Assembly: GCF_000971395.1 (NCBI RefSeq)
Contig: NZ_BBME01000011.1
Coordinates: forward strand, 248,001 to 312,000
Source: Demequina iriomotensis
GTDB taxonomy: Bacteria; Actinomycetota; Actinomycetes; Actinomycetales; Demequinaceae
Direction of reading: 5' to 3'
DNA: 64,000 nt
Part shown: positions 1,410-62,682 of the stretch, piece by piece
Position numbering within the stretch: the stretch's first letter is position 1
How the letters are laid out: the number at the start of each line of letters is the position of its first letter
Program-made: the position numbers and the translations under genes
Notes under the pieces: model-generated
What the model was told of the DNA's origin: nothing
Databases searched by the model: none
What the model saw: the letters and a program-made list of their open reading frames with translations, nothing else

Positions 1410-3122
1410 TCACAGCCCGAGCTCGGACTCGAACTCGCCGGCCTCGATGATCTTCTTGACCGTCTGGAGGAAGCGGGCCGCGTCCGCGCCGTCCACGATC
1501 CGGTGGTCGTAGCTGAGCGGCAGGTAGGCCATCGGGCGCACCGAGATGACGTCCTCGCCGTCGGGGCCCTTGACCACGACGGGCTTCTTGACGATCGCGC
1601 AGGTCGCGAGGATGCCCACCTGGGGCGCGGGGACGATCGGCGTGTCGAAGAGCGTGCCGCCCGAGCCGGTGTTGGTCACCGAGAAGGTGCCTCCCGAGAT
1701 CTCGTCCGAGCTGAGGCCGCCGTTGCGGGCCTTGCCGGCGAGGTCGACGATGCCCTTGGCGTGGTCGACGATGGTCTTCGAGTCGGCGTCCTTGAGCGTC
1801 GGCAGCATGAGGCCCTTGGGGGTGTCCACCGCGAGCGACAGGTTGACGGCGGGGTGGTAGACGATGCTGTCGCCGTCGACCGAGGCGTTGAGGAACGCGT
1901 GCTCCTTGAGCGCCACCGCGACCGCGCGCGTGAAGAACGGCAGGAACGTGAGGTTCACGCCGTGCTTCTCCGAGAACGCGTTCTTGGACTTCGCACGCAG
2001 CGCCCAGATCTTGGTGCAGTCGACCTCGACCACGGAGGTGAGCTGCGCCATGCCGTGCAGCGACTCCATCATCTTGTCGGCGGTGATCTTGCGGATGCGG
2101 GTCATCTTGACCGTCTGGCCACGCAGCTCGGAGACCTCGACGTCCATCGCGGACGATGCGGGGGCAGCGGCCGCCGGGGCGGCAGCGGCGGCAGGCGCGG
2201 CGGTGGCCGCCGCGAGGACGTCCTCCTTGCGGATGCGGCCGCCGACACCGGTGCCGGTCAGCGTGGAGAGGTCCACGCCCTTGTCCGAGGCGAGCTTGCG
2301 CACGATCGGCGTGACGTAGCCCGAGCCGGACGATGCGGCAGCGGCGGGTGCCGGAGCGGCGGGTGCCGGAGCGGCGGGGGCGGCCACGGGGGCCGGGGGA
2401 GCGGGCGGTGCCGGGGGCGCGGCCGGAGCCGGAGCCGGGGCGGCCACCGGCGCGGGGGCCGGGGCCGGAGCGGCGGCGGGAGCCGCGGCCGGAGCCGGAG
2501 CCGGGGCGGCGCCAGGCTCGCCGATGCGGGCCAGGACCGAGCCGACCTCGGCGATCTCGTCCTCGCCGACGAGGATCTCGGTGAGCACGCCGGCGAACGG
2601 CGACGGGATCTCGGTGTCGACCTTGTCGGTCGAGACCTCGAGGAGGGGCTCGTCCGCGTCGACGGTGTCGCCGACGGCCTTGAGCCAGCGCGTGACGGTG
2701 CCCTCGGTCACGGACTCGCCCAGCGCGGGCAGCGTGACGTCGCGGCCACCGCCGGCCGGAGCGGCAGCGGGGGCAGGCGCCTCGGCGACGGGGGCAGGAG
2801 CGGGCTCGGCAGCCGGGGCGGGAGCCGCCTCCGGCGCGGGGGCGGCTCCCGCCCCGGGAGCAGGCGCGGCCGCAGGGGCCTCGCCCGCGTCGCCGATGCG
2901 CGCGAGGATCGCGCCGACCTCGGCCTCCTCGTCCTCCTGGACCAGGATCTCGAGCAGCGTGCCGGCGAACGGCGACGGGATCTCGGTGTCGACCTTGTCG
3001 GTCGAGACTTCGAGGAGGGGCTCGTCGGCGGCGACGGTGTCGCCGACGTTCTTCAGCCAGCGGGTGACGGTGCCCTCGGTGACGGACTCGCCGAGTGCGG
3101 GAAGGGTGACGTCGTTGCTCAT
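1410..3122 (-). CDS. sucB: Dihydrolipoamide acyltransferase (E2) of 2-oxoacid dehydrogenase, two lipoyl domains
   Basis: A 570-aa E2 protein that transfers the acyl group from a swinging lipoyl arm to CoA in pyruvate and/or 2-oxoglutarate dehydrogenase. Two nearly identical lipoyl domains (about residues 3-77 and 127-201) each carry the [12 protein letters not shown] lipoylation site (Lys43 and Lys167). Long Ala/Pro linkers follow, then a peripheral-subunit-binding domain (about 268-305) and the catalytic domain ending with the HRIVDGADA motif (catalytic His near 540). In actinobacteria one such E2 often serves both complexes, so sucB versus dlaT is not settled. It lies 27 bp downstream of lpdA (E3) in an apparent operon. 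Two copies of the dispersed GGACGATGCG 10-mer fall in its linkers. Confidence 0.95.
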
Positions 3123-3149
3123 GTGTGGTTCTCCCTCAGTCGGATCGGA

Positions 3150-4535
3150 TCAGTCGTGGGCGTGCAGCGGCTTGCCGGCGAGCGCGAGGTGCGCCTCGCC
3201 GAGAGCCTCGTTCTGCGTGGGGTGGGCGTGGATGAGCGGGGCGACGTCCTCGGGGTGCGCCTCCCAGCTCACGATGAGCTGCGCCTCGCCGATCTGCTCG
3301 CCGACGCGCGCGCCGAGCATGTGGACGCCGACCACCGGGCCGTCGACCACGCGCACCAGCTTGACGAAGCCGGTGGTGCCCAGGATCTGGCTCTTGCCGT
3401 TGCCGCCCAGGTTGTACTCGAGGGTGACGATGTTGTCCGCGCCGTGCTGCTCCGCGGCCTTGGCCTCGGTGAGGCCCACCGACGCGACCTCGGGGTCGCA
3501 GTAGGTGACGCGGGGGATGTTCGCCTCGACGATCGGCTGCGGCGCGAGGCCGGCGATCTCCTCGGCGACGAAGATGCCCTGCTGGAAGCCGCGGTGCGCG
3601 AGCTGCAGGCCGGGGACGATGTCGCCGACGGCGTAGATGTTCGCGACTCCGGTGTGGAGACGCTCGTCGGTGAGCACGAAGCCGCGGTCGATGCGGATGC
3701 CCTGCTCCTCGTAGCCGAGGTCGGCCGTGCGCGGCCCGCGGCCGACGGCGACCAGCATGACGTCCGCCTCGAGCACGGTGCCGTCCGCGAGGGTCACCTT
3801 GACGCCGGCGTCCGACTGCTCGACGCCCTGGAAGCGGACGCCCACCTTGAAGTTGATGCCGCGCTTGCGGAACGCGCGCTCAAGGCCCTTGGACAGCGCC
3901 TCGTCCTCGTTGGGGGCGAGGTGGGGGAGCGCCTCGACGATCGTGACGTCGGCGCCGAAGGACTTCCACACGGACGCGAACTCGACGCCGATGACGCCGC
4001 CGCCGAGCACGATCGCGCGCTGCGGGACCCACTCCATGCCGAGCGCCTGGTCGGACGTGATGACACGGCCGCCGATCTCGAGGCCGGGGAGCGAGCGGGC
4101 GTAGGAGCCGGTGCCGAGGATGATGTTCGAGCCGGTGTAGCGCTCGCCGTTCACCTCGATGGTGTCGGGGCCGACCAGGCGGCCGTGACCCTCGATCACG
4201 TGCACCTTGCGCGACTTCACGAGGCCCTGGAGGCCGCGGTAGAGGCGGTCGATGACGCCCTGCTTGTAGGAGTTCACCTTGAGCATGTCGATGCCCTGCA
4301 GCGAGCTGTTGACGCCGTACTTCTCACCCTCGCGGGCGCTGTCGGCGAGCTCGGCCGCGTGCAGCAGCGCCTTGGTCGGGATGCAGCCGTTGTGGAGGCA
4401 GGTTCCGCCGACCTTGGACTCCTCGACCAGGCCGACCGTCAGGCCGAGCTGCGACGCGCGAAGGGCAGCGGCATAGCCGCCCGACCCGCCGCCGAGGATG
4501 AGGACATCAAACGAGCGTGGGGTGGACTCGGACAC
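3150..4535 (-). CDS. lpdA: Dihydrolipoyl dehydrogenase (E3)
   Basis: A 461-aa flavoprotein that reoxidises dihydrolipoamide to lipoamide with NAD+ and serves the E2 encoded just downstream. It has an N-terminal FAD-binding motif (LILGGGSGGYAAA), the redox-active disulfide GGTCLHNGCIPTK (Cys46 and Cys51), the NAD-binding motif VLGGGVIGVEFASV, and the C-terminal HAHPTQNE motif (His438, Glu443) that acts as base. Length is normal. The start is GTG at 4533-4535, supported by an AAGGAG sequence about 7 nt upstream. Promoter and leader lie in 4536-4648, shared with a divergent small gene. Confidence 0.96.
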   Translation of the reverse strand: MSESTPRSFDVLILGGGSGGYAAALRASQLGLTVGLVEESKVGGTCLHNGCIPTKALLHAAELADSAREGEKYGVNSSLQGIDMLKVNSYKQGVIDRLYRGLQGLVKSRKVHVIEGHGRLVGPDTIEVNGERYTGSNIILGTGSYARSLPGLEIGGRVITSDQALGMEWVPQRAIVLGGGVIGVEFASVWKSFGADVTIVEALPHLAPNEDEALSKGLERAFRKRGINFKVGVRFQGVEQSDAGVKVTLADGTVLEADVMLVAVGRGPRTADLGYEEQGIRIDRGFVLTDERLHTGVANIYAVGDIVPGLQLAHRGFQQGIFVAEEIAGLAPQPIVEANIPRVTYCDPEVASVGLTEAKAAEQHGADNIVTLEYNLGGNGKSQILGTTGFVKLVRVVDGPVVGVHMLGARVGEQIGEAQLIVSWEAHPEDVAPLIHAHPTQNEALGEAHLALAGKPLHAHD

Positions 4536-4636
4536 TATGGGATCTCCTTGTAAGGGATGTCAGTACCGCTCATCTTGCCACGGTGCGCGTGACCCGCGAA
4601 CCGCGCGAGTTGCGCGCTGTGACGATACCCGGTGGT

Positions 4637-4642
4637 TACGCT
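4637..4642 (+). promoter_or_regulatory. -10-like hexamer TACGCT, leaderless start of the small gene at 4649
   Basis: TACGCT matches the actinobacterial TAnnnT -10 and is followed by exactly six bases before the ATG, so the transcript probably begins at or very near the start codon. No ribosome-binding sequence precedes the ATG. Confidence 0.5.
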
Positions 4643-4648
4643 GGGGAC

Positions 4649-4984
4649 ATGGGTCTGTTCTCGTGGATGTCGAGGTCCAAGCACGCATCGTCCCCTCAGG
4701 GAGGCGGTCGCGACGCCAAGGCGGAGACCATCGCGCACCTCAAGGAGTTCGTCGCGTCGCACACCGGCTGCGAGGCGTTCGTCGAGCCGCCGACGCGCGT
4801 GACGCAGACGACCATGGTGATCGTCGCGGACACGGGGGAGTGGACGCGCCGCCGCGTGCCCGACGAGGCCGCCGCGCGCAAGCTCGCGCAGCAGTTCTCG
4901 ATCCCCGCCTTCGACGTCAACCTCTCGGGCTACCCGTCGCGCATGCGCGAGTGGAACGAGAAGCAGCGCAAGAACCCCAGCTGA
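4649..4984 (+). CDS. Conserved actinobacterial small protein of unknown function
   Basis: A 111-aa protein beginning MGLFSWMSRSKHASSPQGGG, with a short hydrophobic amphipathic N-terminus, a polar linker, then a compact mixed domain (ETIAHLKEFVASHTGCEAFVE through RMREWNEKQRKNPS). The start is ATG at 4649 because a TACGCT -10-like hexamer (4637-4642) ends six bases before it, and the longer in-frame extension lacks coding character. Similar proteins sit divergent from lpdA in related genomes as far as I recall. No catalytic motif is visible. A GGACGATGCG copy (reverse, 4684-4693) falls in the linker at HASSP. Confidence 0.75.
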   Translation: MGLFSWMSRSKHASSPQGGGRDAKAETIAHLKEFVASHTGCEAFVEPPTRVTQTTMVIVADTGEWTRRRVPDEAAARKLAQQFSIPAFDVNLSGYPSRMREWNEKQRKNPS

Positions 4985-5022
4985 CCTCCCGCCCCACCCG
5001 CCGGACACTTCCAACGGAGTGA

Positions 5023-5080
5023 GTCCCGGTTGCGCGGCGTGTCGCTCGCGAAACGGCGCGACACGCCCGCGACCCGGGAC
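5023..5080. other. Long bipartite hairpin in the intergenic region before pepA's 3' end
   Basis: Arms GTCCCGGT (5023-5030) and GGCGTGTCGC (5036-5045) pair with GCGACACGCC (5058-5067) and ACCCGGGAC (5072-5080), giving a 58-nt stem-loop with a small internal loop. It lies 38 bp after the stop of the small gene at 4984 and may terminate it, although no T-run follows. Confidence 0.6.
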
Positions 5081-5298: not shown

Positions 5299-6741
5299 CT
5301 ACGCCTGCGCGCGCTCCTCGAGGAAGCGGAACAGGGTGCGCAGCGAGTGGCCGGTGGAGCCGGCGACGTTCTCGGCCCACGGCTTGCCCTCGTTGTAGGA
5401 CGGGCGCGCGATGTCGAGGTGAGCCCACGGGGTGTCGCCCACGAACTCGCGCAGGAAGATGCCGGCCGACAGCATGCCGCCGCCCTGCGGGTCGCCGATG
5501 TTCTGCAGGTCCGCGATCTTCGAGTCGATCGACTCACGCAGGTGCTCGGGGAGCGGCATCGCCCACATCGGCTCGTCGACCTCGTCCGCGCGGGACACGA
5601 CCTCGTCGCGGATCTCGGGGGTGCCCATGACGCCCGAGGTGCGGGTGCCGAGCGCCATGCCCTGGGCGCCGGTGAGGGTCGCGACGTCGATGAGGACGTC
5701 GGGGTTCTCCTCGCGGGCCTTCACCAGGCCGTCGGCCATCACCAGGCGTCCCTCGGCGTCGGTGTTGAGCACCTCGACGGTCTGGCCGCCGTAGATGCGG
5801 ATGACGTCGGAGGGGCGCTGCGCGGTGCCCGAGGGCATGTTCTCCGCGATGCACAGCCACGCGGTGACGGCGATGGGGAGCTCGGCGCGGGCGGCGGCGA
5901 CGACGGCGTGCAGCACGGTGGCGGCGCCCGTCATGTCGGACTTCATGGTCTCCATCGACTTCGCGGGCTTGAGCGAGATGCCGCCCGTGTCGAACGTGAT
6001 GCCCTTGCCGACGAGCGCGACGGTCTGCGTCGCCCCCTCGGGCTTGTAGGCCACGCGCACCAGGCGCGGCAGGCGCGAGGAGCCCATGCCGACGGCGAGG
6101 ATGCCGCCGAAGCCCTCGTTCGCGAGGCGGTTGGCGTCCCACACCTCGACGTCGACGCCGGCCTGCGCGCCGAGTTGCTCGGCGATCTCCGCGAAGGAGC
6201 CGGGGTAGAGGTCCAGCGGCGGGGTGTTGACCAGGTCGCGGATGCCCGCGGCGGCCTGGATGAGGATGGTGGCGCGCGCGATCGCGGCGTCGGACGCGCC
6301 CGCAACGACCCACTCGGTGTCGGTGGCCGCGTCCTCGGCGGACTTGTAGTCGGTGAACGTGTAGGCGCCGAGCACGGCGCCCTGCGCGACGGCGATCGCC
6401 GCATCGTCCGACTCGACGGGCAGCGCGACGACGACCTTGGACGGCTTCTTGCCGACCTGGCGGGAGGCCTCGCCGGCCGCCGCGCGGAGGTCGGCGTCCG
6501 AGCCGGAGCCGATGCCGACGACGACGATGCGGCGGGCCTCGGTGCCGGCGCCCGGCACGACGGTGACCTTGCCGGCCTTCGACGAGGCGTCGAGCAGGGA
6601 GGCGCCCGCGGCGATGGTCTCGCGCGCCTCGTCGGAGAGCAGCGGGTGGGCTGCGACGGCGTCGTCCGCGGTCCAGCCGACGATGATGGCGTCGGCCTCG
6701 ATGGACGCGACCTGGTCCTGGGTGGTGGTGATGGAGGTCAT
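5299..6741 (-). CDS. pepA: Leucyl aminopeptidase (M17)
   Basis: A 480-aa cytosolic metallo-aminopeptidase that removes N-terminal residues during peptide turnover. The C-terminal catalytic half contains the metal-binding Lys/Asp motif GKGITFDTGGISLKP and the family signature NTDAEGRL, both intact. The N-terminal half is the usual variable domain. The start is ATG at 6739-6741 (MTSITTTQ), because a TAGGCT -10-like hexamer (6749-6754 on the minus strand) ends seven bases before it; the reading frame is open further upstream but that stretch is not protein-like. It is divergent from pyrD (32-bp gap) and ends with a strong terminator. Confidence 0.95.
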   Translation of the reverse strand: MTSITTTQDQVASIEADAIIVGWTADDAVAAHPLLSDEARETIAAGASLLDASSKAGKVTVVPGAGTEARRIVVVGIGSGSDADLRAAAGEASRQVGKKPSKVVVALPVESDDAAIAVAQGAVLGAYTFTDYKSAEDAATDTEWVVAGASDAAIARATILIQAAAGIRDLVNTPPLDLYPGSFAEIAEQLGAQAGVDVEVWDANRLANEGFGGILAVGMGSSRLPRLVRVAYKPEGATQTVALVGKGITFDTGGISLKPAKSMETMKSDMTGAATVLHAVVAAARAELPIAVTAWLCIAENMPSGTAQRPSDVIRIYGGQTVEVLNTDAEGRLVMADGLVKAREENPDVLIDVATLTGAQGMALGTRTSGVMGTPEIRDEVVSRADEVDEPMWAMPLPEHLRESIDSKIADLQNIGDPQGGGMLSAGIFLREFVGDTPWAHLDIARPSYNEGKPWAENVAGSTGHSLRTLFRFLEERAQA

Positions 6742-6773: not shown

Positions 6774-7790
6774 GTGTACGTCCCCCTGTATCGCCACGTC
6801 CTGTCCCGCACCGACGCCGAGTGGGCACACCGCTTCGGGGTGACGGCCATCGGCCGCAACGCGTGGGCCTTCCGGACGATGCGGCGGCTGGGTCTGGTCG
6901 CGCGTCCCCACCGCGAGGGTGCGGTCGAGGCGCTCGGGATCACCTTCCCCGGACCCGTCGGCCTGGCCGCGGGCATGGACAAGGACGCCGAGGCCGTCGC
7001 GGGGCTCGCCGCCGCGGGCTTCGGCTTCGTCGAGGTCGGCACGGTCACGCCGATGGGCCAGCCGGGCAACGAGAAGCCGCGATCGTGGCGCGAGAAGGAC
7101 GTCCAGGGCCTGCGCAACCGCATGGGCTTCAACAACGGCGGCGCCGATGCGATGGCCGAGCGGCTCGCCCAGCTGCGCTCGACGAAGGCCGGCCGGCGCA
7201 TCGTGCTCGGCGTGAACCTGGGCAAGAACAAGGCGACGTCGCCCGAGGGTGCGGCGGACGACTACGCGTACTCCGCGAGGCTGCTCGCCCCGTACGCCGA
7301 CTACCTGGTGGTCAACGTGTCCTCGCCCAACACCCCGGGCCTGCGCGACCTGCAGTCCGTGGAGACGCTGCGTCCCATCCTCGAGGCGACCCGCGCGGCG
7401 GCGGACCAGGCGGTCACGGACCGCAGCGTCCCGCTCCTGGTGAAGATCGCCCCCGACCTCGCGGATGACGATGTCGACGCGGTCGCGGACCTCGCGCTCG
7501 AGCTCGGCCTCGACGGCATCGTCGCCTCGAACACGACCATCGCGCACGACCGCGGCGCCGGAGGGCTCTCCGGCCCCGTGCTGCTGCCGCGCCTCCTCGA
7601 GGTGATCGCGAGGCTGCGCGGCCGCGTCGGCCCCGACCTGTGCCTCATCGGCGTGGGGGGGATCTCCTCGGAGGAGGACGCGCGCGCCGTGCTGGGCGCC
7701 GGCGCGACGCTGCTCCAGGTCTACACGGCGTTCGTCTATCAGGGCCCGTGGTGGGTCGCGAGGCTCAACCGGGCGCTCACCGCGCGCTGA
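6774..7790 (+). CDS. pyrD: Dihydroorotate dehydrogenase, quinone-dependent (class 2)
   Basis: A 338-aa membrane-associated flavoenzyme oxidising dihydroorotate to orotate in pyrimidine synthesis, passing electrons to quinone. The N-terminal helical extension (about 40 residues) marks class 2. Family motifs include [39 protein letters not shown] and the late FMN phosphate-binding stretch [12 protein letters not shown], followed by [13 protein letters not shown]. Start is GTG at 6774, six bases after a TAGTTT hexamer. Its 3' end overlaps the convergent TDT transporter by 52 bp. Confidence 0.95.
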
Positions 7791-8848
7791 CCGCCCGCGG
7801 CCGGTCGCCGCGCGGCGAGCAGGTGCCGCACGGTCCCGGTCGCGGCGACGCCCCATCCGGCGAGCAGCAGCACGAACAGGCCGACGGCCAACGCGTCGAG
7901 CGCCGGCGCCCCGGTGTGCGCGGCGAGGGACGATGCGCCCGTCACCAGGGTGCCGACGGGGAAGGTGAACGCCCACCACCCGAGCGAGAACGGCAGCCCC
8001 TCGCGTGCGGCACGGGCGGTCAGCACGCCGCACACGCCGAGCCACGCGAGCGCGAAGCCCAGGACGGGCAGGCCGGCGAGCACGGCCGCGACCGTGAGCA
8101 GGCGGGCGTCGATCCCCAGCGCGCGACCCGCGTGATCCGCGAGCAGCCCCGCGGCGGTGACGCACTGCCCGAGCGGCCCGAGCACGATCCATAGCGCGGG
8201 CACCGACCGCGCCTCCCCGACGCCGTGCCGGGCGAGGCGCGACCAGATCTGCGGCAGGATCGCGAGCGTCGCGATGCCGGACACACCGACCATGGTCACG
8301 CATGCGACGGCGAGAGCCTGCGCCGTCCCGTCGCCAGCGTGCGGCAGCAGCAGCGCGCCCGTCGCCGCGGACACCATGGGCGGCACGACGGGGAGGAGCG
8401 CGGTCCCCGAGGCGCCGGCGGTCCCGGCCGCCGGGCGCAGGAACGCCAGCGCAGGGACGGCGACCGCCGTCGCGAGCCCCAGCGCCGTGCCCAGGAGCCA
8501 CAGCGCCGCGTCGATCGCGATCACCGCGGGACCGAGGAACGGTGCGGCGACCAGCAGCGTCGCGGCACCGAAGGCGAGCGGCGCCATCGCTGCGGCGCCG
8601 AAGAACGGCGCCACGGCGGGGTCGCGCAGCTGGGCGCTCAGCGCGCCCGGCGTGGTGAGCAGGTGCGCCGCGGTGGCGAGCGAGATGGCCGCGAGCGCGG
8701 CTCCCGCGACCGCCCACGCAGTCCACGCGATCGCGTCGAGCCCGGGCAGGCGCACGGGAAGCACGTGTGCGGAGGTCGCGATGATCGACGTGCCCATGAC
8801 CGCCGAGAACCACTGAGGGGCGACGGGGACGATGCGCGGGCGGGTCAT
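7739..8848 (-). CDS. TDT-family (TehA/SLAC1-like) transporter
   Basis: A 369-aa integral membrane protein with about ten hydrophobic helices and the family's opening PQWFSAVMGTSIIA. TDT proteins include tellurite/C4-dicarboxylate and sulfite exporters and plant SLAC1 anion channels; the substrate here cannot be read from sequence. Start is ATG at 8848 (MTRPRIVPVAP), the first position giving a short cytoplasmic lead before helix 1. A divergent LysR regulator 83 bp away is the likely controller. The last 52 bases overlap pyrD on the opposite strand. Two GGACGATGCG copies lie inside (7928 and 8827). Confidence 0.85.
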   Translation of the reverse strand: MTRPRIVPVAPQWFSAVMGTSIIATSAHVLPVRLPGLDAIAWTAWAVAGAALAAISLATAAHLLTTPGALSAQLRDPAVAPFFGAAAMAPLAFGAATLLVAAPFLGPAVIAIDAALWLLGTALGLATAVAVPALAFLRPAAGTAGASGTALLPVVPPMVSAATGALLLPHAGDGTAQALAVACVTMVGVSGIATLAILPQIWSRLARHGVGEARSVPALWIVLGPLGQCVTAAGLLADHAGRALGIDARLLTVAAVLAGLPVLGFALAWLGVCGVLTARAAREGLPFSLGWWAFTFPVGTLVTGASSLAAHTGAPALDALAVGLFVLLLAGWGVAATGTVRHLLAARRPAAGGQRAVSARLSLATHHGP

Positions 8849-9825: not shown

Positions 9826-10475
9826 GCGGACTCGCGCAGCAGCCTCAGCACCTCCGCGTCCGGGGTCTGCGAGAAGTCGAGGTACCACTGACCCACGGCC
9901 ATGAGGTGATCGGGGATGAGCGCCGCGAGCGCGAGATCGGCGCTGCCGTCCTTCATCAGCGCGTGCAGCGAGTCGGGCGCGGCGACGCCGGCGGCCACGA
10001 TCACCGTCGCGGCGCCCGCGGCGAGGGCGACGTGCGCCGCGGCCCGCGCGGTCCCGCCGGTCGCGATCCCGTCGTCCACCACGATCGCGGTGCGTCCCGC
10101 GAGCGGCACGCGGGGATGCGCGGCGCGGTACCTCGCCGACGCATCGTCCAGCACGGCGCGCTCGCGCGCCTCGATCCGTGCGACGTCGTCGTCCGAGACG
10201 CCCAGCGCGCGCATCGAGGCCTCGTCGAGCACGCGGACCCCGCCCACGCCGATCGCCCCGAAGCCGTACTCGGGGTTGCCCGGTGCGCCGAGCTTGCGCA
10301 CGACGCACACGTCGAGCGGGAGCCCGAGGCCGCGGGCGATCGCGGCGCCGACCGGGACTCCGCCGCGCGGCAGCCCGAGCACGACGGCGTCCGTCGCGTC
10401 GCCCTGGGCCACCAGCGGCGACAGGAGCCACGTGAGCCTCGCACCCGCGTCGTCGCGGTCGCGCAGCATGTCCAC
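9822..10475 (-). CDS. Phosphoribosyltransferase-domain protein
   Basis: A 217-aa type I PRTase-fold protein. The PRPP-binding loop IVVDDGIATGGTARAA is intact, and an N-terminal PRGGVPVGAAIARGLGLPLD motif is typical of the stand-alone actinobacterial PRTase family of unknown substrate (often fused to dienelactone hydrolases elsewhere). Start is GTG at 10475 (read Met-Asp-Met-Leu-Arg-Asp) because a CACACT hexamer ends exactly six bases before it; ATG at 10469 is the alternative. Stop codons of this gene and the LysR gene overlap (CTAG). Confidence 0.8.
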   Translation of the reverse strand: MDMLRDRDDAGARLTWLLSPLVAQGDATDAVVLGLPRGGVPVGAAIARGLGLPLDVCVVRKLGAPGNPEYGFGAIGVGGVRVLDEASMRALGVSDDDVARIEARERAVLDDASARYRAAHPRVPLAGRTAIVVDDGIATGGTARAAAHVALAAGAATVIVAAGVAAPDSLHALMKDGSADLALAALIPDHLMAVGQWYLDFSQTPDAEVLRLLRESA

Positions 10476-11709: not shown

Positions 11710-11728
11710 GGACGATGCGTGCGTCGGG

Positions 11729-13548: not shown

Positions 13549-14529
13549 ATGCGTGCCGCCATCGCCGCCCAGAGCTGGCTCCGCCCGGACACCGGGCGAC
13601 TCACCCCCGTCGACACCGTCCGGATCGTCCGAGATGCCTGGTCGGCGGCGGCCTCGCACGTCGAGCTGCAGGTGGTCGCGACGCCCTCCGGCGGACCGCG
13701 CAGCGCCGATGCGCTGGCCGGTGAGGTGCGCGCCGTGGGGGGTGCGACGGCCCGCGACGTGGGCGCCTCGGTGGTGCTCGCCCCTGCCGCCAACGGGCGC
13801 TGGGAGCCTGCCGCGCTGCGTGCCGCGCTGCTCGGGCTCGCGGCCGCCGGCGAGCAGCGCAGCATCGTGGTGCCGCTCGGGGATGCGCCGCCGGCGGGCG
13901 ACGCCGTCGACCTGTGGGGCGGGGGCCTCGAGGCGGCGCGCGCCGACCTGTCCGCGCTCCGCATGGTCGCGCTCGTGACCTCCGACAGGCCGTTGCTCGG
14001 CTTCACGGGGATGAGCGCCGCCGTGCGGGACGGACGCGAGCACGATGCGGCGCTGGCCTCGGCCGCGCAGGCGCAGGAGGAGCGCTGGACCGCGATCGCG
14101 AGGGCCGCCGACCCCGTCGCGTCCCGACGCACGCTCGTCGGCCCCGGCCGGCTCTCCGACGAACGAGGCACCGGCGCCGCCGGCGGCCTCGCCTACGCGT
14201 TGGCCGCGATGGGCGCGCACGTGGCGCCGGCCGCGGGTGCGCTGGCCGAGCTCACGGGGTTCGACCGGGCGGCCGCCGACGCGGACGTCGTGGTCGCCGT
14301 GGTCGACCGCCTGCGCGCGGCGGACCTCGACCACGGCGCCGCCTCCGCCGCATCGTCCCTCGCGGCGCGCCGCGGCGTTCCATGCGTCGTCGTGACGGCG
14401 GAGCTCGCGGTGGGCAAGCGCGACCTCATGGCCGCCGGGATCGCCGGCGCCCACGAGGGCGCGGCGGGGGAGGGCGGCCTCGCCGATCAGGTGCGCCGCG
14501 TGGCGCAGACCTGGACCCCCGCTCGATGA
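13549..14529 (+). CDS. Degenerate glycerate-kinase-family protein
   Basis: A 326-aa protein resembling the GlxK glycerate kinase fold but about 50 residues shorter than usual. The nucleotide-site stretch GTGAAGGLAYALAAMGA and the following LAELTGFDRAAADADVVV match the family. The N-terminal substrate-side segment (normally a PDSFKGS-like motif) is missing, and the late GEGxxDxQT motif is replaced by AVVDRLRAADLDHG. Actinobacteria carry a similar gene beside erpA, so this may be a conserved non-enzymatic member. Start ATG at 13549 is seven bases after CACACT; it is divergent from nadA with a 40-bp gap. Confidence 0.65.
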   Translation: MRAAIAAQSWLRPDTGRLTPVDTVRIVRDAWSAAASHVELQVVATPSGGPRSADALAGEVRAVGGATARDVGASVVLAPAANGRWEPAALRAALLGLAAAGEQRSIVVPLGDAPPAGDAVDLWGGGLEAARADLSALRMVALVTSDRPLLGFTGMSAAVRDGREHDAALASAAQAQEERWTAIARAADPVASRRTLVGPGRLSDERGTGAAGGLAYALAAMGAHVAPAAGALAELTGFDRAAADADVVVAVVDRLRAADLDHGAASAASSLAARRGVPCVVVTAELAVGKRDLMAAGIAGAHEGAAGEGGLADQVRRVAQTWTPAR

Positions 14530-14975: not shown

Positions 14976-15227
14976 TCAGCGCAGACGGACGGTGAGGGCT
15001 ACGCCCTCGCCGTCCGTTTCGCTTTCCCCCAGGAACTCGTGGCCCGTCATGCGCGCCCACGCGGGCACGTCGACCCGCGCCGCCAGGTCTGTGCAGATCA
15101 CGGTGATCTCCGTGCCTGCCTCCAGGCCGCGCGCGGCCTTCGCGAGCTCGATGATCGGCAGCGGGCACAGGAGCCCCGCCGCATCGACCGTGACGCGACC
15201 CGCGCCGGCGACCGGCGCATCGTCCAT
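14976..15227 (-). CDS. TusA/SirA-family sulfur-carrier protein
   Basis: An 83-aa protein of the small TusA fold. It has the hallmark AAGLLCPLPIIELAKAA, with the sulfur-carrying Cys21 in the conserved Cys-Pro-x-Pro motif. TusA-like proteins accept persulfide from cysteine desulfurases and pass it to tRNA thiolation, molybdopterin or other sulfur pathways. Start is ATG at 15227 (MDDAPVAGAG), two bases after the stop of the desulfurase-like gene, so the two are almost certainly translated from one message. A reverse GGACGATGCG copy covers the first codons (15216-15225). Confidence 0.88.
   Translation of the reverse strand: MDDAPVAGAGRVTVDAAGLLCPLPIIELAKAARGLEAGTEITVICTDLAARVDVPAWARMTGHEFLGESETDGEGVALTVRLR
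14985..15017 (+). terminator. Terminator of erpA, embedded in the 3' end of the tusA-like gene
   Basis: ACGGACGGTGAGGGC (14985-14999) pairs with GCCCTCGCCGTCCGT (15003-15017), one mismatch, followed on the plus strand by TTTCGCTTT. It lies 15 bp after the erpA stop and inside the coding end of the convergent gene. Confidence 0.75.
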
Positions 15228-19446: not shown

Positions 19447-19559
19447 CCGTGCTCCGGCGGGGGAGGACGGCGCGGACGTTCGCCGGCCGACGCCGCGATG
19501 TCGGTGCCGCACGGCACAATGGTCCCCGTCGCATCGTCCCCACCGACGGGAGCCCCCTC

Positions 19560-22730: not shown

Positions 22731-22744
22731 GGACGATGCGCGCC

Positions 22745-23752: not shown

Positions 23753-23779
23753 GTCCGCGCATCGTCCCCGGGGACGCCG

Positions 23780-23824: not shown

Positions 23825-25447
23825 CTAGTGGTGCTCGTGCTTCGCAGCCTCGAGTTCCTCCGGGGTGACGGGGGAGATGCGCTTCTCGAAGTAGATCCGC
23901 GAGAGCCGCTGCTTGAAGCGGTCCCACCGGTAGCCCTTGCGGCGCACGCCGCGGTCGTTGTACTCGGGCTCGATCTCGAGCGGAGAGATGTCGTCGTAGG
24001 AGACGAGGACCCAACGCTCGTGATCGGTGAGCGGCTCGTGGACCTCCTGGTACTCGCCGTGCTCGTGACGGACGATGCGACCCGTCTCCTTGCCGTGCAG
24101 CACCAGCTCGCGGTCCTTGCGCTGGAGGCCGATGCACAGGCGGCGGGTGATCCAGAAGGCGAGGACCGGCAGCACGAAGATGCCGATGCGGAAGAAGTAG
24201 GTGAGGTCGTTGAGCGACAGGTGGAACAGGTTCGCGATGATGTCGTTCGAGCCCTCCATCACCAGGATCACGTAGAAGGTGATGAGCGCGACGCCGATGC
24301 CGGTGCGGACCGGCGCGTTGCGCGGACGGTCGAGCACGTGCTTCTCGCCGCGGTCGCCCGTGGCCCACGACTCGATCCACGGGTACAGCGCGACGAACCC
24401 GAAGAACAGGCCCGGCATGATGAGCGCGGGGATGAGGAGGTTGAGCGAGAGCGTGTAGCCCCAGATCTCCCACTCCATCGGGATGACGTCGAACAGCCAG
24501 CCCGGCATGAGGCGCAGCGCGCCGTCGACGAACAGGATGTACCAGTCGGGCTGGGTTCCGGCCGACACGGGCGACGGGTCGTAGGGGCCGTAGTTCCACA
24601 CCGGGTTGATGGTGAAGATGGCCGCGACCAGCGCGATGATGCCGAACACGACGAAGAAGAATCCGCCGGCCTTCGCGGTGTACACCGGGAACAGGGGAAG
24701 GCCCACGACGTTCTTGTCGGTGCGGCCGCCGCCCGGGTACTGCGTGTGCTTGTGCAGGAACACCAGGAACAGGTGCAGCGCGACGAGCACGAGGATCAGG
24801 CCGGGCACCAGCAGGATGTGCATGGTGAAGAGGCGGGGGATGAGGATCTCGCCGGGGAACTCGCCGCCGAAGATCCAGTACGAGATGTACTCGCCCACGA
24901 TCGGGATCGAGCGCGTCACGCCCTCGATGATGCGCAGGCCGTTGCCGGAGAGCACGTCGTCGGGGAGCGAGTAGCCGGAGAAGCCCGCCGCGAGCGACAG
25001 GATCATCAGCGTGAAGCCCACGAGCCAGTTGAGCTCGCGCGGCTTGCGGAACGCGCCGGTGAAGAACACGCGCGCCATGTGCGTGACGATCGCCGCCGTG
25101 AACAGCAGCGCCGACCAGTGGTGGATCTGGCGCATGAGGAGGCCGCCGGGGACCTCGAACGACATGTGCAGCGTCGACTCGAAGGCCTTCGACATCTCGA
25201 CGCCCTGCATCGTGGCGAGCGGGCCCTCGTAGGTGACGATGTCCATCGACGGCACGAAGAAGGCCGTGAGGAAGACGCCCGAGAGCAGCAGCACGACGAA
25301 CGAGTACAGCGCGATCTCGCCCAGCATGAACGACCAGTGGTCGGGGAAGAGCTTGCGTGCGAAGAACTTGACGAAGCCACCGATCGAGGTGCGCTCGTCG
25401 ACCCAGTTCGCGGTGCCGGCGGCGGCGGTGTTGACGCGAGCGCCCAT
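23825..25447 (-). CDS. qcrB: Cytochrome bc1 complex cytochrome b subunit
   Basis: A 540-aa menaquinol-oxidising cytochrome b. Heme-ligating His pairs are visible in MRQIHHWSALLFTAAIVTHMARVF and in the later FTMHILLVPGLILVLVALHLF region (shown only in part). The Qo-site motif is PDWY in GTQPDWYILFVDG, the actinobacterial form of PEWY. The long hydrophilic C-terminal tail (about 110 residues) is typical of actinobacterial QcrB. It is the last gene of ctaE-qcrC-qcrA-qcrB, starting within the qcrA stop codon. Inhibitor-binding Qp-site residues cannot be judged without alignment. Confidence 0.96.
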   Translation of the reverse strand: MGARVNTAAAGTANWVDERTSIGGFVKFFARKLFPDHWSFMLGEIALYSFVVLLLSGVFLTAFFVPSMDIVTYEGPLATMQGVEMSKAFESTLHMSFEVPGGLLMRQIHHWSALLFTAAIVTHMARVFFTGAFRKPRELNWLVGFTLMILSLAAGFSGYSLPDDVLSGNGLRIIEGVTRSIPIVGEYISYWIFGGEFPGEILIPRLFTMHILLVPGLILVLVALHLFLVFLHKHTQYPGGGRTDKNVVGLPLFPVYTAKAGGFFFVVFGIIALVAAIFTINPVWNYGPYDPSPVSAGTQPDWYILFVDGALRLMPGWLFDVIPMEWEIWGYTLSLNLLIPALIMPGLFFGFVALYPWIESWATGDRGEKHVLDRPRNAPVRTGIGVALITFYVILVMEGSNDIIANLFHLSLNDLTYFFRIGIFVLPVLAFWITRRLCIGLQRKDRELVLHGKETGRIVRHEHGEYQEVHEPLTDHERWVLVSYDDISPLEIEPEYNDRGVRRKGYRWDRFKQRLSRIYFEKRISPVTPEELEAAKHEHH

Positions 25448-39524: not shown

Positions 39525-39555
39525 GGACGATGCGAAGGCGGGCCGCGCATCGTCC
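39525..39555. repeat. Inverted pair of the 10-mer GGACGATGCG
   Basis: GGACGATGCG (39525-39534) and its reverse complement (39546-39555) flank 11 bases, making a perfect 10-bp hairpin between the convergent aroG and kinase genes. It is the only place in the window where two copies face each other at close range. Confidence 0.85.
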
Positions 39556-41580: not shown

Positions 41581-42912
41581 TCAGCTGAACCGCGCCATGA
41601 GCGCCTTGACGCTCGCGACGTAGCCGACGGTGTCGGAGTGGTAGCCGTGGTCGATGACGGCGGCGGCGCCCTGGTAGTACCCCGCGATCGCGTCCTCGAC
41701 GCTCGTGAAGGTGCGGTCGAGCGCCCGCAGGATGAGCACGCCCGCGAGGACGTTGTCACGCGGGTCGAGCAGGTCGAGCCGCCGCCCCGCCATGTCGGAG
41801 GCCCACTCGCCCGAGGTGGGGATCACCTGCATCACGCCCACCGCGTTGGCGGGGGAGACCGCGCGCATGTCGAAGCCGGACTCCTGGTACGAGATGGCCT
41901 GGGCGAGCACCGGGTCGACGCCATGCTCCTTCGCGGTCGCGATGATGATCCGCTGCATGTCGTCCCGCGACGGCACGGCCCGCGTGAGCAGGACGGCCTT
42001 GTTCTGGTTGGCGGCCCGGACGATGTCGGAGGCGTAGGTGCGTCCCGCGAACGTGTCGCCGACCAGCGGCTCGGTCGAATCGCCCGGCACGGTGAGGCGC
42101 TGGCCCACCCGGATGAGCGACGCGTTCGCGAGCGTGTTCTCGCGGGCGAGCACGGCGACCGTGGTGCCGTGCCGCTGCGCGATCGACGAGAGCGTGTCGC
42201 CGGCCTTGACCGTGTAATGGGTGCGGGACGCGGCGGCCGGGGCCGTCTGCGTCGTGGCCGTGCGGGAGGACGATGCGGAGGTCGCCTTCCCTGGGATGGA
42301 GAGGCGCTGGCCGACCGTGATGAAGGAGGCGTTCGCCAGGGTGTTGGCCTTCGCGAGGGAGGCGACCGTGGTGCCGTGCCTCTGCGCGATCTCCGACAGC
42401 GTGTCGCCCGAGCGGACGGTGTAGGTCGACGCCGTCCTTGCCGTCGGCTGCGACGTGTGGGACGCGGAGGCGGAGGCCTGGCCCGAGCCACCGATGGTGA
42501 GTCGCTGCCCGGGGAAGATCAGTGCGGCGTTCGCCAGGTGGTTGTCCCGCGCGAGCCTCGCGACCGTGGTGCCGTGGCGGTGCGCGATCTCGGACAGCGT
42601 GTCGCCCGATTTGACGGTGTACGTGGCGGCGAGGGTCGTCACCTTCGTCGAGGGCTTGCCGGCGGATCCCGTCGGCACGGTGACGGTGGTGCCGACGTAG
42701 ATGGTGGCCCGCGAGTCGAGGTCGTTCGCGGCGACGATCGCGGGGATGGTGCTGCCGTAACGATGCGCGAGGTGCGACACCGTGTCACCCGGTTCGACGC
42801 GGTGCTGCTCGTCCGCGGCAGCCGGGGCCGTCGTCGCGAGGCCGAAGAAGGTGGCGATCGCGGCGGTGGTCGCCGCGGGTCCGGCGGGGACGAGGGGGGA
42901 CGTCGCAGCCAT
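41581..42912 (-). CDS. Secreted LysM / lytic transglycosylase (SLT) protein
   Basis: A 443-aa exported cell-wall enzyme. A signal peptide (about 1-33, ending APAAADE) precedes four LysM repeats, each with the SGDTLSEIAHRHGTT-type core, joined by Ser/Thr/Ala linkers. The C-terminal SLT domain has the catalytic Glu in AISYQESGFDMRAVS, then NAVGVMQVIP and IAGYYQGAAAV. It would cleave glycan strands to 1,6-anhydro ends. GGAGG precedes the ATG. Its place beside the PASTA kinase suggests a shared role in wall growth. A GGACGATGCG copy falls in the third linker. Confidence 0.92.
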   Translation of the reverse strand: MAATSPLVPAGPAATTAAIATFFGLATTAPAAADEQHRVEPGDTVSHLAHRYGSTIPAIVAANDLDSRATIYVGTTVTVPTGSAGKPSTKVTTLAATYTVKSGDTLSEIAHRHGTTVARLARDNHLANAALIFPGQRLTIGGSGQASASASHTSQPTARTASTYTVRSGDTLSEIAQRHGTTVASLAKANTLANASFITVGQRLSIPGKATSASSSRTATTQTAPAAASRTHYTVKAGDTLSSIAQRHGTTVAVLARENTLANASLIRVGQRLTVPGDSTEPLVGDTFAGRTYASDIVRAANQNKAVLLTRAVPSRDDMQRIIIATAKEHGVDPVLAQAISYQESGFDMRAVSPANAVGVMQVIPTSGEWASDMAGRRLDLLDPRDNVLAGVLILRALDRTFTSVEDAIAGYYQGAAAVIDHGYHSDTVGYVASVKALMARFS

Positions 42913-45693: not shown

Positions 45694-47136
<1,443 letters not shown>

Positions 47137-57280: not shown

Positions 57281-59712
<2,432 letters not shown>

Positions 59713-59861
59713 CAGTCACCTCGCAGAATTCTGGCGGTCAGGGTCCAGCCCGTATTGTCTCGCGTCCGTCGGACAGCGGCGCACAGGCACGCGGAGAGGG
59801 CCTCCGCATCGTCCTGAGGACGGGCGGAACGTCCACCCCCGAAGGTGAGACAATAGCGGCC

Positions 59862-60428: not shown

Positions 60429-61591
60429 CCCCCGGGGGACGGCTGGCGGCTGCGGGGCTGTCCGTCCCCGACTACGGCGGCCTCGAGCTGGGCGCCGTGC
60501 TGCCGGGCGTGCTCGCCGCGGTGGGCGCCGCCGATGCGGTGGCCGCGCGCGATGCCGAGGCGGACCGGGTCCGTCTGGGCATCCCCGCCGCCGAGCACAT
60601 CGTCGTGGTCCTCATCGACGGCCTGGGCCACCACCAGCTCGACGCGCGGAAGGGCCACGCGCCGTTCCTGCGCGGTACCGAGTCGGCCGTCATCACCGCA
60701 GGCTTCCCCACGACGACGGCGACGTCGCTCGCGCTCTTCGGCACCGGACGGCCCTCCGGCGCGACGGGGATGACCGGCTACACCGCGCACAACCCCGCGA
60801 CGGGCGCCGCCGCGAACCTCGTGTCGTGGGAGGGCGCAGACGATCCGCACCGGTGGCAGCGCGAGCCCTCGCTCCTCGCCGCCGCGCACGAGCGCGGGCT
60901 CAGCGTCGCGTCGCTGGGTCAGGCCAAGTTCGAGGGTTCGGGCCTCACCCGCGCCGCGCTGGCGGGCGGGGACTTCATCGGCACCACGGGCCTGGCCGAG
61001 CGCGTCGACCAGGCGATCCGCCGCGCTCGTACGCCCGGGCTCACCTACCTCTACTGGGGGGCGCTCGACCGCCAGGGCCACAAGCACGGCTGGCAGTCGG
61101 AACCGTGGACGGCGGCGCTCGAGGACGCCGACCAGGAGCTGCGGCGCCTGCGCGCCCGCCTGCCGCGCCATGCGGCCATGGTCATCACCGCCGATCACGG
61201 CATGGTCGACGTCACGGGCGCACCTCGCTGGGACATCGGGGCCGATCCCGCCCTCGCGCAGGACGTGCGGCTGGTCGCGGGCGAGCCCCGCATGCTCCAC
61301 CTCCACATGGACGATGCGTCGGCGGCGCCCGCGGTGGCCGAGCGGTGGCGCTCGGTGCTGGGCGAGGGGGCGGCCGTGCTCGAGCGCGCAGAGGCCGTCG
61401 CGCTCGGCTTGTTCGGACCCGTCTCCGGCCACGTCGAGGATCGCATCGGCGACGTGGTGGTCGCGATGGGGGGCCGGGCGACCGTGGTCGACTCCCGCAC
61501 CCAGACGCCCGAGGCGATCGGGCTCGTCGGCGTGCACGGCTCGCTCACGCGTGAGGAGCTCGACGTGCCGTTGCTGGTGGCGGCGGGCTGA
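60425..61591 (+). CDS. Alkaline-phosphatase-superfamily phosphodiesterase/pyrophosphatase
   Basis: A 388-aa protein of the type I phosphodiesterase/nucleotide-pyrophosphatase family. Metal sites appear as Asp in VVVLIDGLGHHQL, the nucleophile Thr in GFPTTTATSL, Asp in WGALDRQGHKHGW, and Asp-His in VITADHGMVD. It probably hydrolyses nucleotide or phospho-diester substrates; which is unknown. There is no signal peptide, so it is cytosolic. GTG start overlaps the DUF5998 stop. A GGACGATGCG copy lies at 61309. Confidence 0.85.
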   Translation: MTPGGRLAAAGLSVPDYGGLELGAVLPGVLAAVGAADAVAARDAEADRVRLGIPAAEHIVVVLIDGLGHHQLDARKGHAPFLRGTESAVITAGFPTTTATSLALFGTGRPSGATGMTGYTAHNPATGAAANLVSWEGADDPHRWQREPSLLAAAHERGLSVASLGQAKFEGSGLTRAALAGGDFIGTTGLAERVDQAIRRARTPGLTYLYWGALDRQGHKHGWQSEPWTAALEDADQELRRLRARLPRHAAMVITADHGMVDVTGAPRWDIGADPALAQDVRLVAGEPRMLHLHMDDASAAPAVAERWRSVLGEGAAVLERAEAVALGLFGPVSGHVEDRIGDVVVAMGGRATVVDSRTQTPEAIGLVGVHGSLTREELDVPLLVAAG

Positions 61592-61608
61592 GGGAGCCCG
61601 CCGGGCGA

Positions 61609-62682
61609 TCAGCCCTGGTCGTTCTTCGCGCCGAAGACGATCTCGTCCCAGCTGGGGACCGAGGCGCGCCCACGCTTCGCCGGACGCCGATCGACCGGCT
61701 CCTCGGGCTTGGGCTGCGGAGCCGCGGCCGCGGGTTCGCTCGCGCGCGCCCGACCAGCGGGGTGGGAGAAGCCCGTCTCCGCCTCGCGAGCGCGGCGCGC
61801 GGGGCCGAAGCCCTCGAACGCCTCGTCGTCGTCCTCGTCCTCGTCGGTCTCCGCCACGGCCTCGCGCGTGCCGCGCCGGAGGTCGAGGTCGTCGAGCAGC
61901 AGCTCGGTCTGGGTGGGCTCGGGGGCGCGACGCGCGGCGGGGGCCGGCGCATCGTCCTCCGCCGCGGCCTCGGCGGCCTCGGGGGAGTCCACCAGGGGCA
62001 CGGGCTCCGTGGGGGCCGGCGGGCGGGTGGCCTGCAACGGTCGGGCGGCGTCCTTCTCGGAGTCGCGCACGGCGCTGAGGTGGCGCCGGGGGATGGGCAC
62101 GTCGAGCAGCTCGGTCTCCGAGAGCCAGCGCGCCTCCTCGTCCTCGGCGGTGAGCGTCCGCGCCGAGTGGTCGAACGTCCACAGGGCACGCACGCCGCGA
62201 CCGGACACGCGGTAGTCGGCGGCGACGCGCCAGGGCTCGTCGATCTCGCGCCAGGCGTCCCACGTGACCGACTCGGGGTCGACGCCGCGGGCGGCCAGGC
62301 GGTCGGTCACCAGGTCGCCCAGCTGGGGAGCGCTGGGGTCGCGGCCGATGCGGGTCTCGCGTGCGAGGTCCGCGATGTAGCGGCGCTCGGCGGCGACGGG
62401 GCCCTCGTACTTCTCGATGGCGGCCAGGGACGTGCCGGACAGCTCCGCGAGCTCCGCCGCCGTGAGCCCGGCACGGATGCGCTGCTGGATCTCGCGCGGC
62501 GTCATCGTGGGCCCGTCGGACTCCTCGGGCGACGCGGCGGCGGGCGACGCGGCGGGGCGCGTGTACCTGACCGCGTGGCGAAGCTCGTCGGAGAGGGGCA
62601 GCTCGAAGCGGTCACCCGACTCGGACTCCACGACGAGGTGGAGCCCGTCCTCGGAGGGGCCGACAAGGGTGAGGCGCGTCAT
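61609..62682 (-). CDS. sepH: Septation protein SepH (DUF3071)
   Basis: A 357-aa actinobacterial cell-division protein. The N-terminal domain starts MTRLTLVGPSEDGLHLVVES and includes an HTH-like segment (MTPREIQQRIRAGLTAAELAELSG in key parts). A long disordered Ala/Glu/Asp region follows, ending in the conserved short C-terminal motif KRGRASVPSWDEIVFGAK. In Streptomyces SepH binds FtsZ and promotes its assembly. ATG at 62682 lies six bases after CACCCT. A reverse GGACGATGCG copy falls in the disordered region. Confidence 0.9.
   Translation of the reverse strand: MTRLTLVGPSEDGLHLVVESESGDRFELPLSDELRHAVRYTRPAASPAAASPEESDGPTMTPREIQQRIRAGLTAAELAELSGTSLAAIEKYEGPVAAERRYIADLARETRIGRDPSAPQLGDLVTDRLAARGVDPESVTWDAWREIDEPWRVAADYRVSGRGVRALWTFDHSARTLTAEDEEARWLSETELLDVPIPRRHLSAVRDSEKDAARPLQATRPPAPTEPVPLVDSPEAAEAAAEDDAPAPAARRAPEPTQTELLLDDLDLRRGTREAVAETDEDEDDDEAFEGFGPARRAREAETGFSHPAGRARASEPAAAAPQPKPEEPVDRRPAKRGRASVPSWDEIVFGAKNDQG

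What the first reader, a model, noticed from the sequence alone, without database searches (positions are those of the whole stretch)
2151..61957. A 10-bp DNA word, GGACGATGCG, is about 80-fold over-represented across the window
I count 24 perfect copies, 12 on each strand, spread from 2 to 62 kb. With about 72% G+C and independent bases, the expected number on both strands is about 0.3 (0.36^7 x 0.14^3 x 128,000). Copies occur in unrelated genes, both orientations and all frames, so shared protein sequence cannot explain them. The equal strand split argues against a replication-polarised KOPS or Chi-like word, unless the window spans a polarity switch. Candidates are a binding site for a nucleoid or partitioning protein, a methylation or uptake word, or a small dispersed repeat.
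Basis: partly seen in the sequence, partly recalled or inferred. Interest (0 to 1): 0.75.

Follow-up and report, generated by a model that had tools for sequence, protein, structure and literature searches.

The report
Likely DNA uptake signal in Demequina
A ten-letter DNA word repeated about 1,300 times in this actinobacterium, with one-letter variants in sister species, looks like a password for taking up DNA of one's own kind, a system so far known mainly from Neisseria and Haemophilus relatives.

Summary
GGACGATGCG occurs 24 times in the window (12 per strand) against about 1 expected, and 1,324 times in the 3.16-Mb genome, a Demequina. Codon usage and protein sequence do not explain it. 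It has no strand polarity and is 2.5 times denser between genes. It often forms close inverted pairs: 447 seen, about 70 expected, in 15 genomes. At orthologous sites it is kept more often than its flanks.

The genus has dialects: 28 of 44 genomes have a dominant word of 611 to 1,564 copies, of the form N-N-A/C-CGA-Y-GC-N. Within seven genomes bases 4-9 tolerate change little, bases 1-3 and 10 more. This mirrors the Neisseriaceae DNA uptake sequence. The genome also has type IV pilus genes, ComEC and a ComEA-like gene.

Best reading: an independently evolved, dialect-forming DNA uptake sequence in a high-G+C Gram-positive genus. Competence, uptake bias and receptor are unproven; one genome with pilus and ComEC genes shows no such word.

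The parts
2151..2160 (+). GGACGATGCG copy, antisense in sucB-like gene 1410-3122
2328..2337 (+). GGACGATGCG copy, antisense in the same gene
4684..4693 (-). copy, antisense, in ORF 4649-4984
6400..6409 (-). copy, sense, in leucyl aminopeptidase gene 5299-6741
6874..6883 (+). copy, sense, in ORF 6774-7790
7928..7937 (+). copy, antisense, in ORF 7739-8848; the aligned site reads GGACGATGCC in D. sediminis (its own dialect) but also in D. subtropica and D. gelatinilytica, which use GGACGATGCG
8827..8836 (+). copy, antisense near the start of ORF 7739-8848
10140..10149 (-). copy, sense, in ORF 9822-10475
11710..11719 (+). intergenic copy; the aligned site in D. sediminis reads GGACGATGCC, its own dialect
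14349..14358 (-). copy, antisense, in ORF 13549-14529
15216..15225 (-). copy, sense, at the start of ORF 14976-15227
19530..19539 (-). intergenic copy
22731..22740 (+). intergenic copy
23758..23767 (-). intergenic copy
24070..24079 (+). copy, antisense, in qcrB-like gene 23825-25447
27198..27207 (+). copy, antisense, in ORF 26520-27308
39525..39534 (+). left arm of an inverted pair between the convergent genes 38082-39461 (+) and 39562-41535 (-)
   Evidence: hairpin -29.2 kcal/mol
39546..39555 (-). right arm of the same inverted pair, terminator-like position
42268..42277 (+). copy, antisense, in ORF 41581-42912
45780..45789 (-). copy, antisense, in sigma-70-like gene 45745-47136
58504..58513 (-). 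copy, sense, in topoisomerase subunit A gene 57277-59712
59805..59814 (-). intergenic copy
61309..61318 (+). copy, sense, in ORF 60425-61591
61948..61957 (-). copy, sense, in ORF 61609-62682

Best explanation
GGACGATGCG is the DNA uptake sequence of this Demequina. A surface DNA receptor, probably a minor pilin of its type IV pilus or a partner of it, prefers DNA carrying the word; the pilus retracts, ComEA and ComEC pass one strand into the cell, and RecA recombines it. Because incoming DNA that carries the word is favoured at each round of transformation, copies accumulate and are kept wherever they are tolerated (between genes, in variable stretches of genes, in terminator-like hairpins) until there is one per 2-3 kb. 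When receptor specificity shifts, the genome's word drifts to a new dialect, mostly at the tolerant bases (1-3 and 10, sometimes 7), while the CGAYGC core stays. Shown here: the over-representation, genus-wide dialects, core/edge tolerance, inverted pairs, lack of polarity, local site conservation and the machinery genes. Inferred: competence, sequence-biased uptake, the receptor and the evolutionary driver.
For: 1,324 copies genome-wide. Whole-genome counts in 44 Demequina genomes: GGACGATGCG dominant with 711-1,564 copies in 15, GGCCGATGCG with 667-1,203 in 6, GGCCGATGCC with 651-1,118 in 5, GGACGATGCC with 611 in 1, GCCCGACGCT with 908 in 1; GGCCGATGCT in one more from stretches, 26 against 0.8. 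One-mismatch variants in seven genomes with five different words: clear excess at base 1 in all 7 (3- to 5-fold) and at base 10 in most, against at most mild excess at bases 4-9 (largest 19/11, 14/8, 7/3). Codon choice is overridden: after a G, Asp-Asp-Ala is written GAC GAT GCG in 53 of 63 cases although GAT is 617 of 5,900 Asp codons. Inverted pairs 2-20 bp apart: 248 + 199 in 15 genomes against about 35 expected per orientation. Denser between genes: 2.5-fold in the own genome, 1.2- to 4.5-fold in 9 of 9 others tested. Sites kept in 12 same-dialect relatives: 36 of 91 aligned sites intact against 449 of 2,856 flanking 10-mers. No polarity. Pilus cluster in the own genome: PilB, PilT, PilC, PilA, two more N_methyl proteins, a lectin-domain protein, PilD, PilM, and PilN and PilO by position. 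ComEC in 43 of 44 genomes, T2SSE ATPases in 44 of 44, a ComEA-like SLBB + HhH protein beside ComEC in the own genome.
Against: No listed paper deals with natural transformation of Demequina. The receptor is unknown: 0 of 44 genomes have a ComP_DUS match over the cut-off, and identity of PilA to the own-genome PilA does not follow dialect in the clusters compared. In three genomes the ComEC match comes in two pieces (G008, G026, G041), which may be broken genes or sequencing errors; all three have a dominant dialect word. G001 keeps ComEC and a PilB cluster but no family word stands out in 120 kb, and 16 of 44 genomes have none of the five counted words at 600 or more. Evidence that sites convert to the local dialect is thin: of two D. 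sediminis sites reading GGACGATGCC, one reads the same in two species of the other dialect. Against all 10-mers of the region, not just flanks, site conservation is only slightly raised. Spacing is random (gap CV 0.99). Depletion in foreign DNA was not tested.
Confidence: 0.74

Rival explanations
1. A recombination hotspot word (Chi-like) read by a RecBCD/AddAB/AdnAB-type nuclease, which would also be a short non-palindromic word that differs between species.
For: Short, non-palindromic, genome-wide, species-specific.
Against: No orientation bias against GC skew: 348 versus 323 of 671 copies; Chi words are polarised (recalled). Over-representation is 27-fold over order-3 Markov (116/4.3) and inverted pairs are enriched, neither expected of Chi as I recall it.
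Confidence: 0.08
2. A binding site of a nucleoid-associated, partitioning or chromosome-organising protein.
For: Dispersed over the genome, both strands, intergenic enrichment.
Against: Spacing in 312 kb is as random as a Poisson process; replacement of the dominant word between sister species at single edge bases is hard to drive through an internal site; no polarity.
Confidence: 0.08
3. A DNA methylation or restriction-modification word, as with self-recognition by a methylated uptake motif.
For: Would also discriminate own DNA and could differ between species.
Against: Fully specified 10-bp words at 25-30 times expectation are unlike restriction sites, which are usually avoided (recalled). 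Graded tolerance of bases 1-3 and 10 is unlike a methylase site. No methylome data were available.
Confidence: 0.05
4. A small dispersed mobile repeat or terminator cassette spread by copying.
For: Inverted pairs, three of three examined just after gene ends.
Against: Conservation stops at 10 bp with only weak flank bias (at most 0.33 bit); 93 of 116 copies lie in coding sequence; no larger shared unit was seen in the flank analysis of 116 copies.
Confidence: 0.02
5. A by-product of codon or codon-pair usage or of neighbour-dependent mutation.
For: 76 of 93 coding copies share one codon offset.
Against: Synonymous shuffling gives 11 (maximum 20) against 93; the word forces rare codons (GAT, GCA); it is denser between genes.
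Confidence: 0.01

Closest known systems
DNA uptake sequence (DUS) of Neisseriaceae with its dialects
   Same: A 10-mer in exceptionally high numbers, eight dialects following phylogeny, an essential core (CTG there, CGAYGC here by tolerance only), inverted pairs at terminators, permissive intergenic placement (PMC3630211, passages). Type IV pilus and DNA receptor pilin (PMC6370729, passages).
   Different: Different word and core; high-G+C Gram-positive host; uptake not demonstrated; no ComP over the Pfam cut-off in 44 genomes.
Uptake signal sequence (USS) of Pasteurellaceae
   Same: Short over-represented uptake word of 9 bp in H. influenzae (PMC1626085, start of abstract), with clade variants (recalled).
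   Different: Unrelated word; the A/T-tract flanks of USS (recalled) have no counterpart: flank bias here is weak.
Natural transformation of Micrococcus luteus (Actinobacteria)
   Same: Actinobacterium with comEA and comEC (PMC6370729 and PMC4322843, passages).
   Different: M. luteus uses Flp/Tad pili; Demequina has a PilB/PilT/PilC/PilM cluster; the passages I saw mention no uptake word for M. luteus.
HIP1 of cyanobacteria
   Same: Very abundant genomic short word (recalled).
   Different: HIP1 is a palindromic octamer (recalled); here non-palindromic words change between sister species.

Membership tests
DNA uptake sequence (DUS/USS class) | Short word highly over-represented genome-wide, on both strands | tested here: met
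   1,324 copies, 680/644; 116 against 4.3 by order-3 Markov in 312 kb
DNA uptake sequence (DUS/USS class) | Species or clade dialects sharing a core | tested here: met
   five words counted in 44 genomes, 28 with a dominant word of 611 or more; low tolerance at bases 4-9 in 7 genomes
DNA uptake sequence (DUS/USS class) | Inverted pairs in terminator-like hairpins | tested here: met
   447 pairs against about 70 expected in 15 genomes; 3 of 3 pairs looked at lie just after gene ends; other dialects: pairs in the stretches of 3 of 12 genomes
DNA uptake sequence (DUS/USS class) | Host has a DNA uptake pilus and ComEC | tested here: met
   genes present: pilus cluster, ComEC, ComEA-like; that they take up DNA is not shown; ComEC match split in 3 genomes
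DNA uptake sequence (DUS/USS class) | Copies conserved in core genes and depleted in foreign DNA | tested here: inconclusive
   kept more than flanks, 36/91 versus 449/2,856; depletion in foreign DNA not tested
DNA uptake sequence (DUS/USS class) | Preferential binding, uptake or transformation of DNA with the word | not testable with these tools
   needs cells or purified receptor
Neisserial DUS with ComP receptor | ComP_DUS pilin | tested here: not met
   0 of 44 genomes over the Pfam cut-off; 2 of 44 at E <= 0.001 below it; own PilA E = 0.0024, below cut-off
KOPS / Chi (polarised words) | Strand bias along the replichore | tested here: not met
   348 versus 323 of 671 copies against local GC skew; C17 68/48; ori and dif not mapped
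Restriction-modification / methylation word | Base modification at the word | not testable with these tools
   no long-read signal available
Dispersed mobile repeat | Conserved unit longer than the word | tested here: not met
   information at most 0.33 bit outside the 10 bp, 116 copies

The most novel reading that the evidence does not exclude
A third, independently evolved lineage of DNA-uptake-sequence biology, the first in a Gram-positive phylum, with at least six dialects inside one genus (GGACGATGCG, GGCCGATGCG, GGCCGATGCC, GGACGATGCC, GCCCGACGCT, and GGCCGATGCT from stretches only), including a dialect (GGACGATGCG) that appears again in D. salsinemoris, which sits in another clade of the PepA tree. 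It would imply sequence-specific self-recognition across a thick cell wall by a receptor that is not ComP.
Probability: 0.64. Interest if true: 0.9.

Novelty: new variant of a known kind. Interest (0 to 1): 0.82.

Why it matters
Uptake sequences are described for Neisseriaceae and Pasteurellaceae (as the passages seen put it). If confirmed, Demequina shows that such self-recognition arises independently in a Gram-positive lineage, gives another radiation of dialects with which to test how word and receptor co-evolve, and marks a genus as probably competent, with a word that should raise transformation. It offers many closely related cultured strains with different dialects in one genus.

Tried and rejected
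Codon origin: rejected by synonymous shuffling and by the rare codons the word forces. Replication polarity: no sign of it; a long run of '+' places in the listing was checked on stretches, which hold both strands, so I take it for a listing artefact. Regular spacing: not found (CV 0.99). The longest word-free gaps (up to 12.7 kb) have ordinary G+C and about the length random spacing gives. ComP homologue: none over cut-off. PilA as the dialect-determining receptor: identity to the own-genome PilA does not follow dialect; the PDB relatives at E <= 0.01 are type IV pilins, pseudopilins and geopilins. Presence beyond the genus: GGACGATGCG is at 1-70 copies in the 75 genomes outside the genus that were searched; the short PepA loci of other genera gave no dispersed word of the family, and a TGGCCGATGC signal in Ruaniaceae loci comes largely from stretches shared between the orthologous loci; those loci, 3 to 21 kb each, are too short to exclude other words. 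Apparent words in Rarobacter and Cellulomonas loci are mostly tandem repeats. Structure prediction was not used, because its rule as I read it does not admit loci from the fetch from genomes. Searching papers for the letters of the word: 320 papers hold them or parts, 20 were listed, none by title about a genomic word in bacteria.

Limits: gene calls are from my own codon-based caller, not a standard annotation. In one search, of 22 pilus loci 4 printed no cluster (G002, G009, G020, G036), G017 only two genes, G041 is fragmented and G027 is cut at a contig end; these say little. The tree is of one protein and holds 37 of the 44 genomes; G001, G002, G003, G008, G017, G034 and G041 are not in it. 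Expected counts use low-order Markov models; expected pairs use rounded genome sizes. Stretches were fetched for a part of the genomes only: no word scan was made, or only on a 13-21-kb locus, for G004, G010, G016, G018, G019, G022, G024, G025, G028, G029, G030, G032, G037, G038 and on 20 kb for G003, whose dialects rest on whole-genome counts of the five words.
Full report
What was checked. The window holds 24 copies of GGACGATGCG, 12 per strand; Markov models of order 1 to 4 expect 1.0 to 1.9. The window lies in a genome of 3,164,437 bases in 27 contigs, a Demequina: the window's leucyl aminopeptidase is up to 94% identical to those of named Demequina species. The genome holds 1,324 copies, 680 and 644 by strand; the word read backwards occurs 3 times, though that control is not codon-matched.

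Not codons. In 312 contiguous kb of contig C17 there are 116 copies against 4.3 expected by an order-3 model. Of these 93 lie in coding sequence, 22 between genes and 1 at an edge; density is 22 in 27.0 kb against 93 in 285 kb, 2.5-fold higher between genes. In nine other genomes, with their own word, the ratio is 1.2 to 4.5. Shuffling synonymous codons 200 times gives a mean of 11 and a maximum of 20 coding copies. After a G, Asp-Asp-Ala is GAC GAT GCG in 53 of 63 occurrences although GAT is only 617 of 5,900 Asp codons; after a C, Ala-Ser-Ser is most often GCA TCG TCC (23) although GCA is rare (576, against 7,883 GCG and 5,446 GCC). The word dictates codon choice, not the reverse.

Anatomy. 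Outside the ten bases the information content is at most 0.33 bit. In seven genomes with five different words, one-mismatch variants are in clear excess at base 1 (7 of 7) and, in most, at bases 2 and 10; base 3 is tolerant in some (68/33, 19/6, 11/4). Bases 4-9 (CGAYGC) show at most a mild excess: base 7 19/11 and 14/8, base 9 7/3, base 6 10/6 and 8/5. The word is not polarised: 348 of 671 copies lie on the G-rich strand in stretches of 15 genomes. Gaps between copies are random (CV 0.99).

Dialects. Counts in 44 genomes of the genus (the own and 43 others): GGACGATGCG dominates in 15 (711-1,564 copies), GGCCGATGCG in 6 (667-1,203), GGCCGATGCC in 5 (651-1,118), GGACGATGCC in 1 (611), GCCCGACGCT in 1 (908). 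The other 16 have none of these five at 600 or more. From stretches, one of the 16 has GGCCGATGCT (26 against 0.8 in 121 kb), several have mixed GGCCGATGC-G/C/T words, G002 and G027 have weak GGCCGACGC- and GGACGACGCC signals, G011 has 254 copies of GCCCGACGCT genome-wide but only 5 in 121 kb of stretches, and in G001 none stands out in 120 kb. On a tree of the aminopeptidase (39 rows, 37 of the 44 genomes) the GGACGATGCG species form one clade with D. sediminis (GGACGATGCC) inside it; D. salsinemoris, also GGACGATGCG (1,403 copies), sits with NBRC 110052 and T00b26 in another clade (100/100), which suggests a recurrent dialect, with the caution that this is a single-gene tree. Outside the genus the word is at 1-70 copies in 75 genomes.

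Copies are kept, with turnover. In 12 relatives with the same dialect, 36 of 91 aligned sites of the first 17 kb of the window are intact, against 449 of 2,856 flanking 10-mers. Against the regional average of all 10-mers (0.22-0.39 by species) the excess is small, so the sites lie in locally variable stretches and are kept there. Turnover is high: 55 of 91 are not intact, and by relative the share intact runs from 2 of 8 to 5 of 8 or 6 of 10. In D. sediminis two of eight aligned sites read exactly its own dialect word and one reads GGACGATGCG; but one of those two also reads GGACGATGCC in D. subtropica and D. gelatinilytica, so it is not a clean case of conversion.

Inverted pairs. Pairs 2-20 bp apart occur 248 times in one orientation and 199 in the other in the 15 GGACGATGCG genomes; about 35 are expected for each (two hits in D. 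sediminis are left out). Three pairs examined lie just after gene ends, two folded as RNA give hairpins of -39 and -29 kcal/mol. One is in the window, 39525-39555, between convergent genes. Pairs of other dialects were seen in stretches of 3 of 12 genomes (G013, G033, G014). This matches the statement for Neisseriaceae that inverted DUS pairs associate with terminators (PMC3630211, passages).

Machinery. The own genome has a cluster PilB-PilT-PilC-PilA, then proteins of 735, 221 and 527 aa, then PilD-PilM-PilN-PilO. Pfam (ten proteins including ComEC and ComEA): T2SSE on PilT, T2SSF on PilC, N_methyl on PilA and on the 735- and 221-aa proteins, PilM_2, Peptidase_A24; the 527-aa protein has only a ricin-type lectin match. 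PilB rests on the T2SSE search; PilN and PilO are named by position. ComEC (758 aa) lies next to a 236-aa SLBB + helix-hairpin-helix protein, ComEA-like. ComEC is found in 43 of 44 genomes; in G008, G026 and G041 the match comes in two pieces. T2SSE ATPases are in 44 of 44.

Interpretation. A non-palindromic, unpolarised, heavily over-represented word with single-base dialects between sister species, a little-tolerant core, tolerance in permissive places and terminator-like hairpins, in a host with pilus, ComEA-like and ComEC genes, is what DNA uptake sequences look like. What it works like is therefore fairly clear (0.74). Membership is not complete: uptake bias is untested and the neisserial receptor ComP is absent by the Pfam test. 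The Chi, nucleoid-site, methylation and mobile-repeat readings each fit less well (see rivals); methylation could not be tested.

Literature. Searches for uptake sequences with Actinobacteria, Gram-positive hosts or Demequina (0 papers; 26: 111, 25 listed; 27: 5; 52: 52, 15 listed; 53: 4; 54: 7) listed no paper whose title or abstract start reports an uptake sequence in Actinobacteria. The library is open-access only, lists were capped in two of the six, and I read passages of four papers, none whole. So novelty is likely, not proven.

Noticed in passing
L065, L071, L072 (Occultella) and L059, L068, L070 (Ruaniaceae): ACGCCGTCG is over-represented on both strands in short loci of Ruaniaceae (30 against 4.3 in 48 kb of Occultella; 14 against 1.3 in 50 kb of the other three), perhaps another genomic word. 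The loci are orthologous, so part may be shared sequence.
   Followed up: partly
G001 (L088-L092, L216) and G011 (L136-L139, L215, L030): Two Demequina genomes with PilB and ComEC but little or no sign of a family word in about 120 kb; G011 has 254 copies of GCCCGACGCT genome-wide. Possible loss, or a word outside the scanned form.
   Followed up: partly
G008:C1:2039413-2040200, G026:C1:423579-424363, G041:C1:296957-297743: The ComEC match comes in two pieces in three genomes that each have a dominant dialect word; broken gene or sequencing error.
   Followed up: no
L208:10453-12036 (-), own-genome pilus cluster: A 527-aa protein inside the type IV pilus cluster carries a ricin-type beta-trefoil lectin domain (E 4.3e-12); the neighbouring N_methyl protein is 735 aa long.
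   Followed up: no
L080, seven places 4203-11568: CGTACGGTCC occurs seven times on one strand in 21 kb of a Streptosporangiales MAG, in different contexts.
   Followed up: no
G026 stretches L103-L107: GCTCCGCCACA and overlapping words, 12 copies in 100 kb of this genome, perhaps a separate repeat.
   Followed up: no
window 27208-39524 and 45790-58503: The two longest word-free gaps of the 312-kb contig part (12.3 and 12.7 kb) both lie in the window; ordinary G+C.
   Followed up: partly
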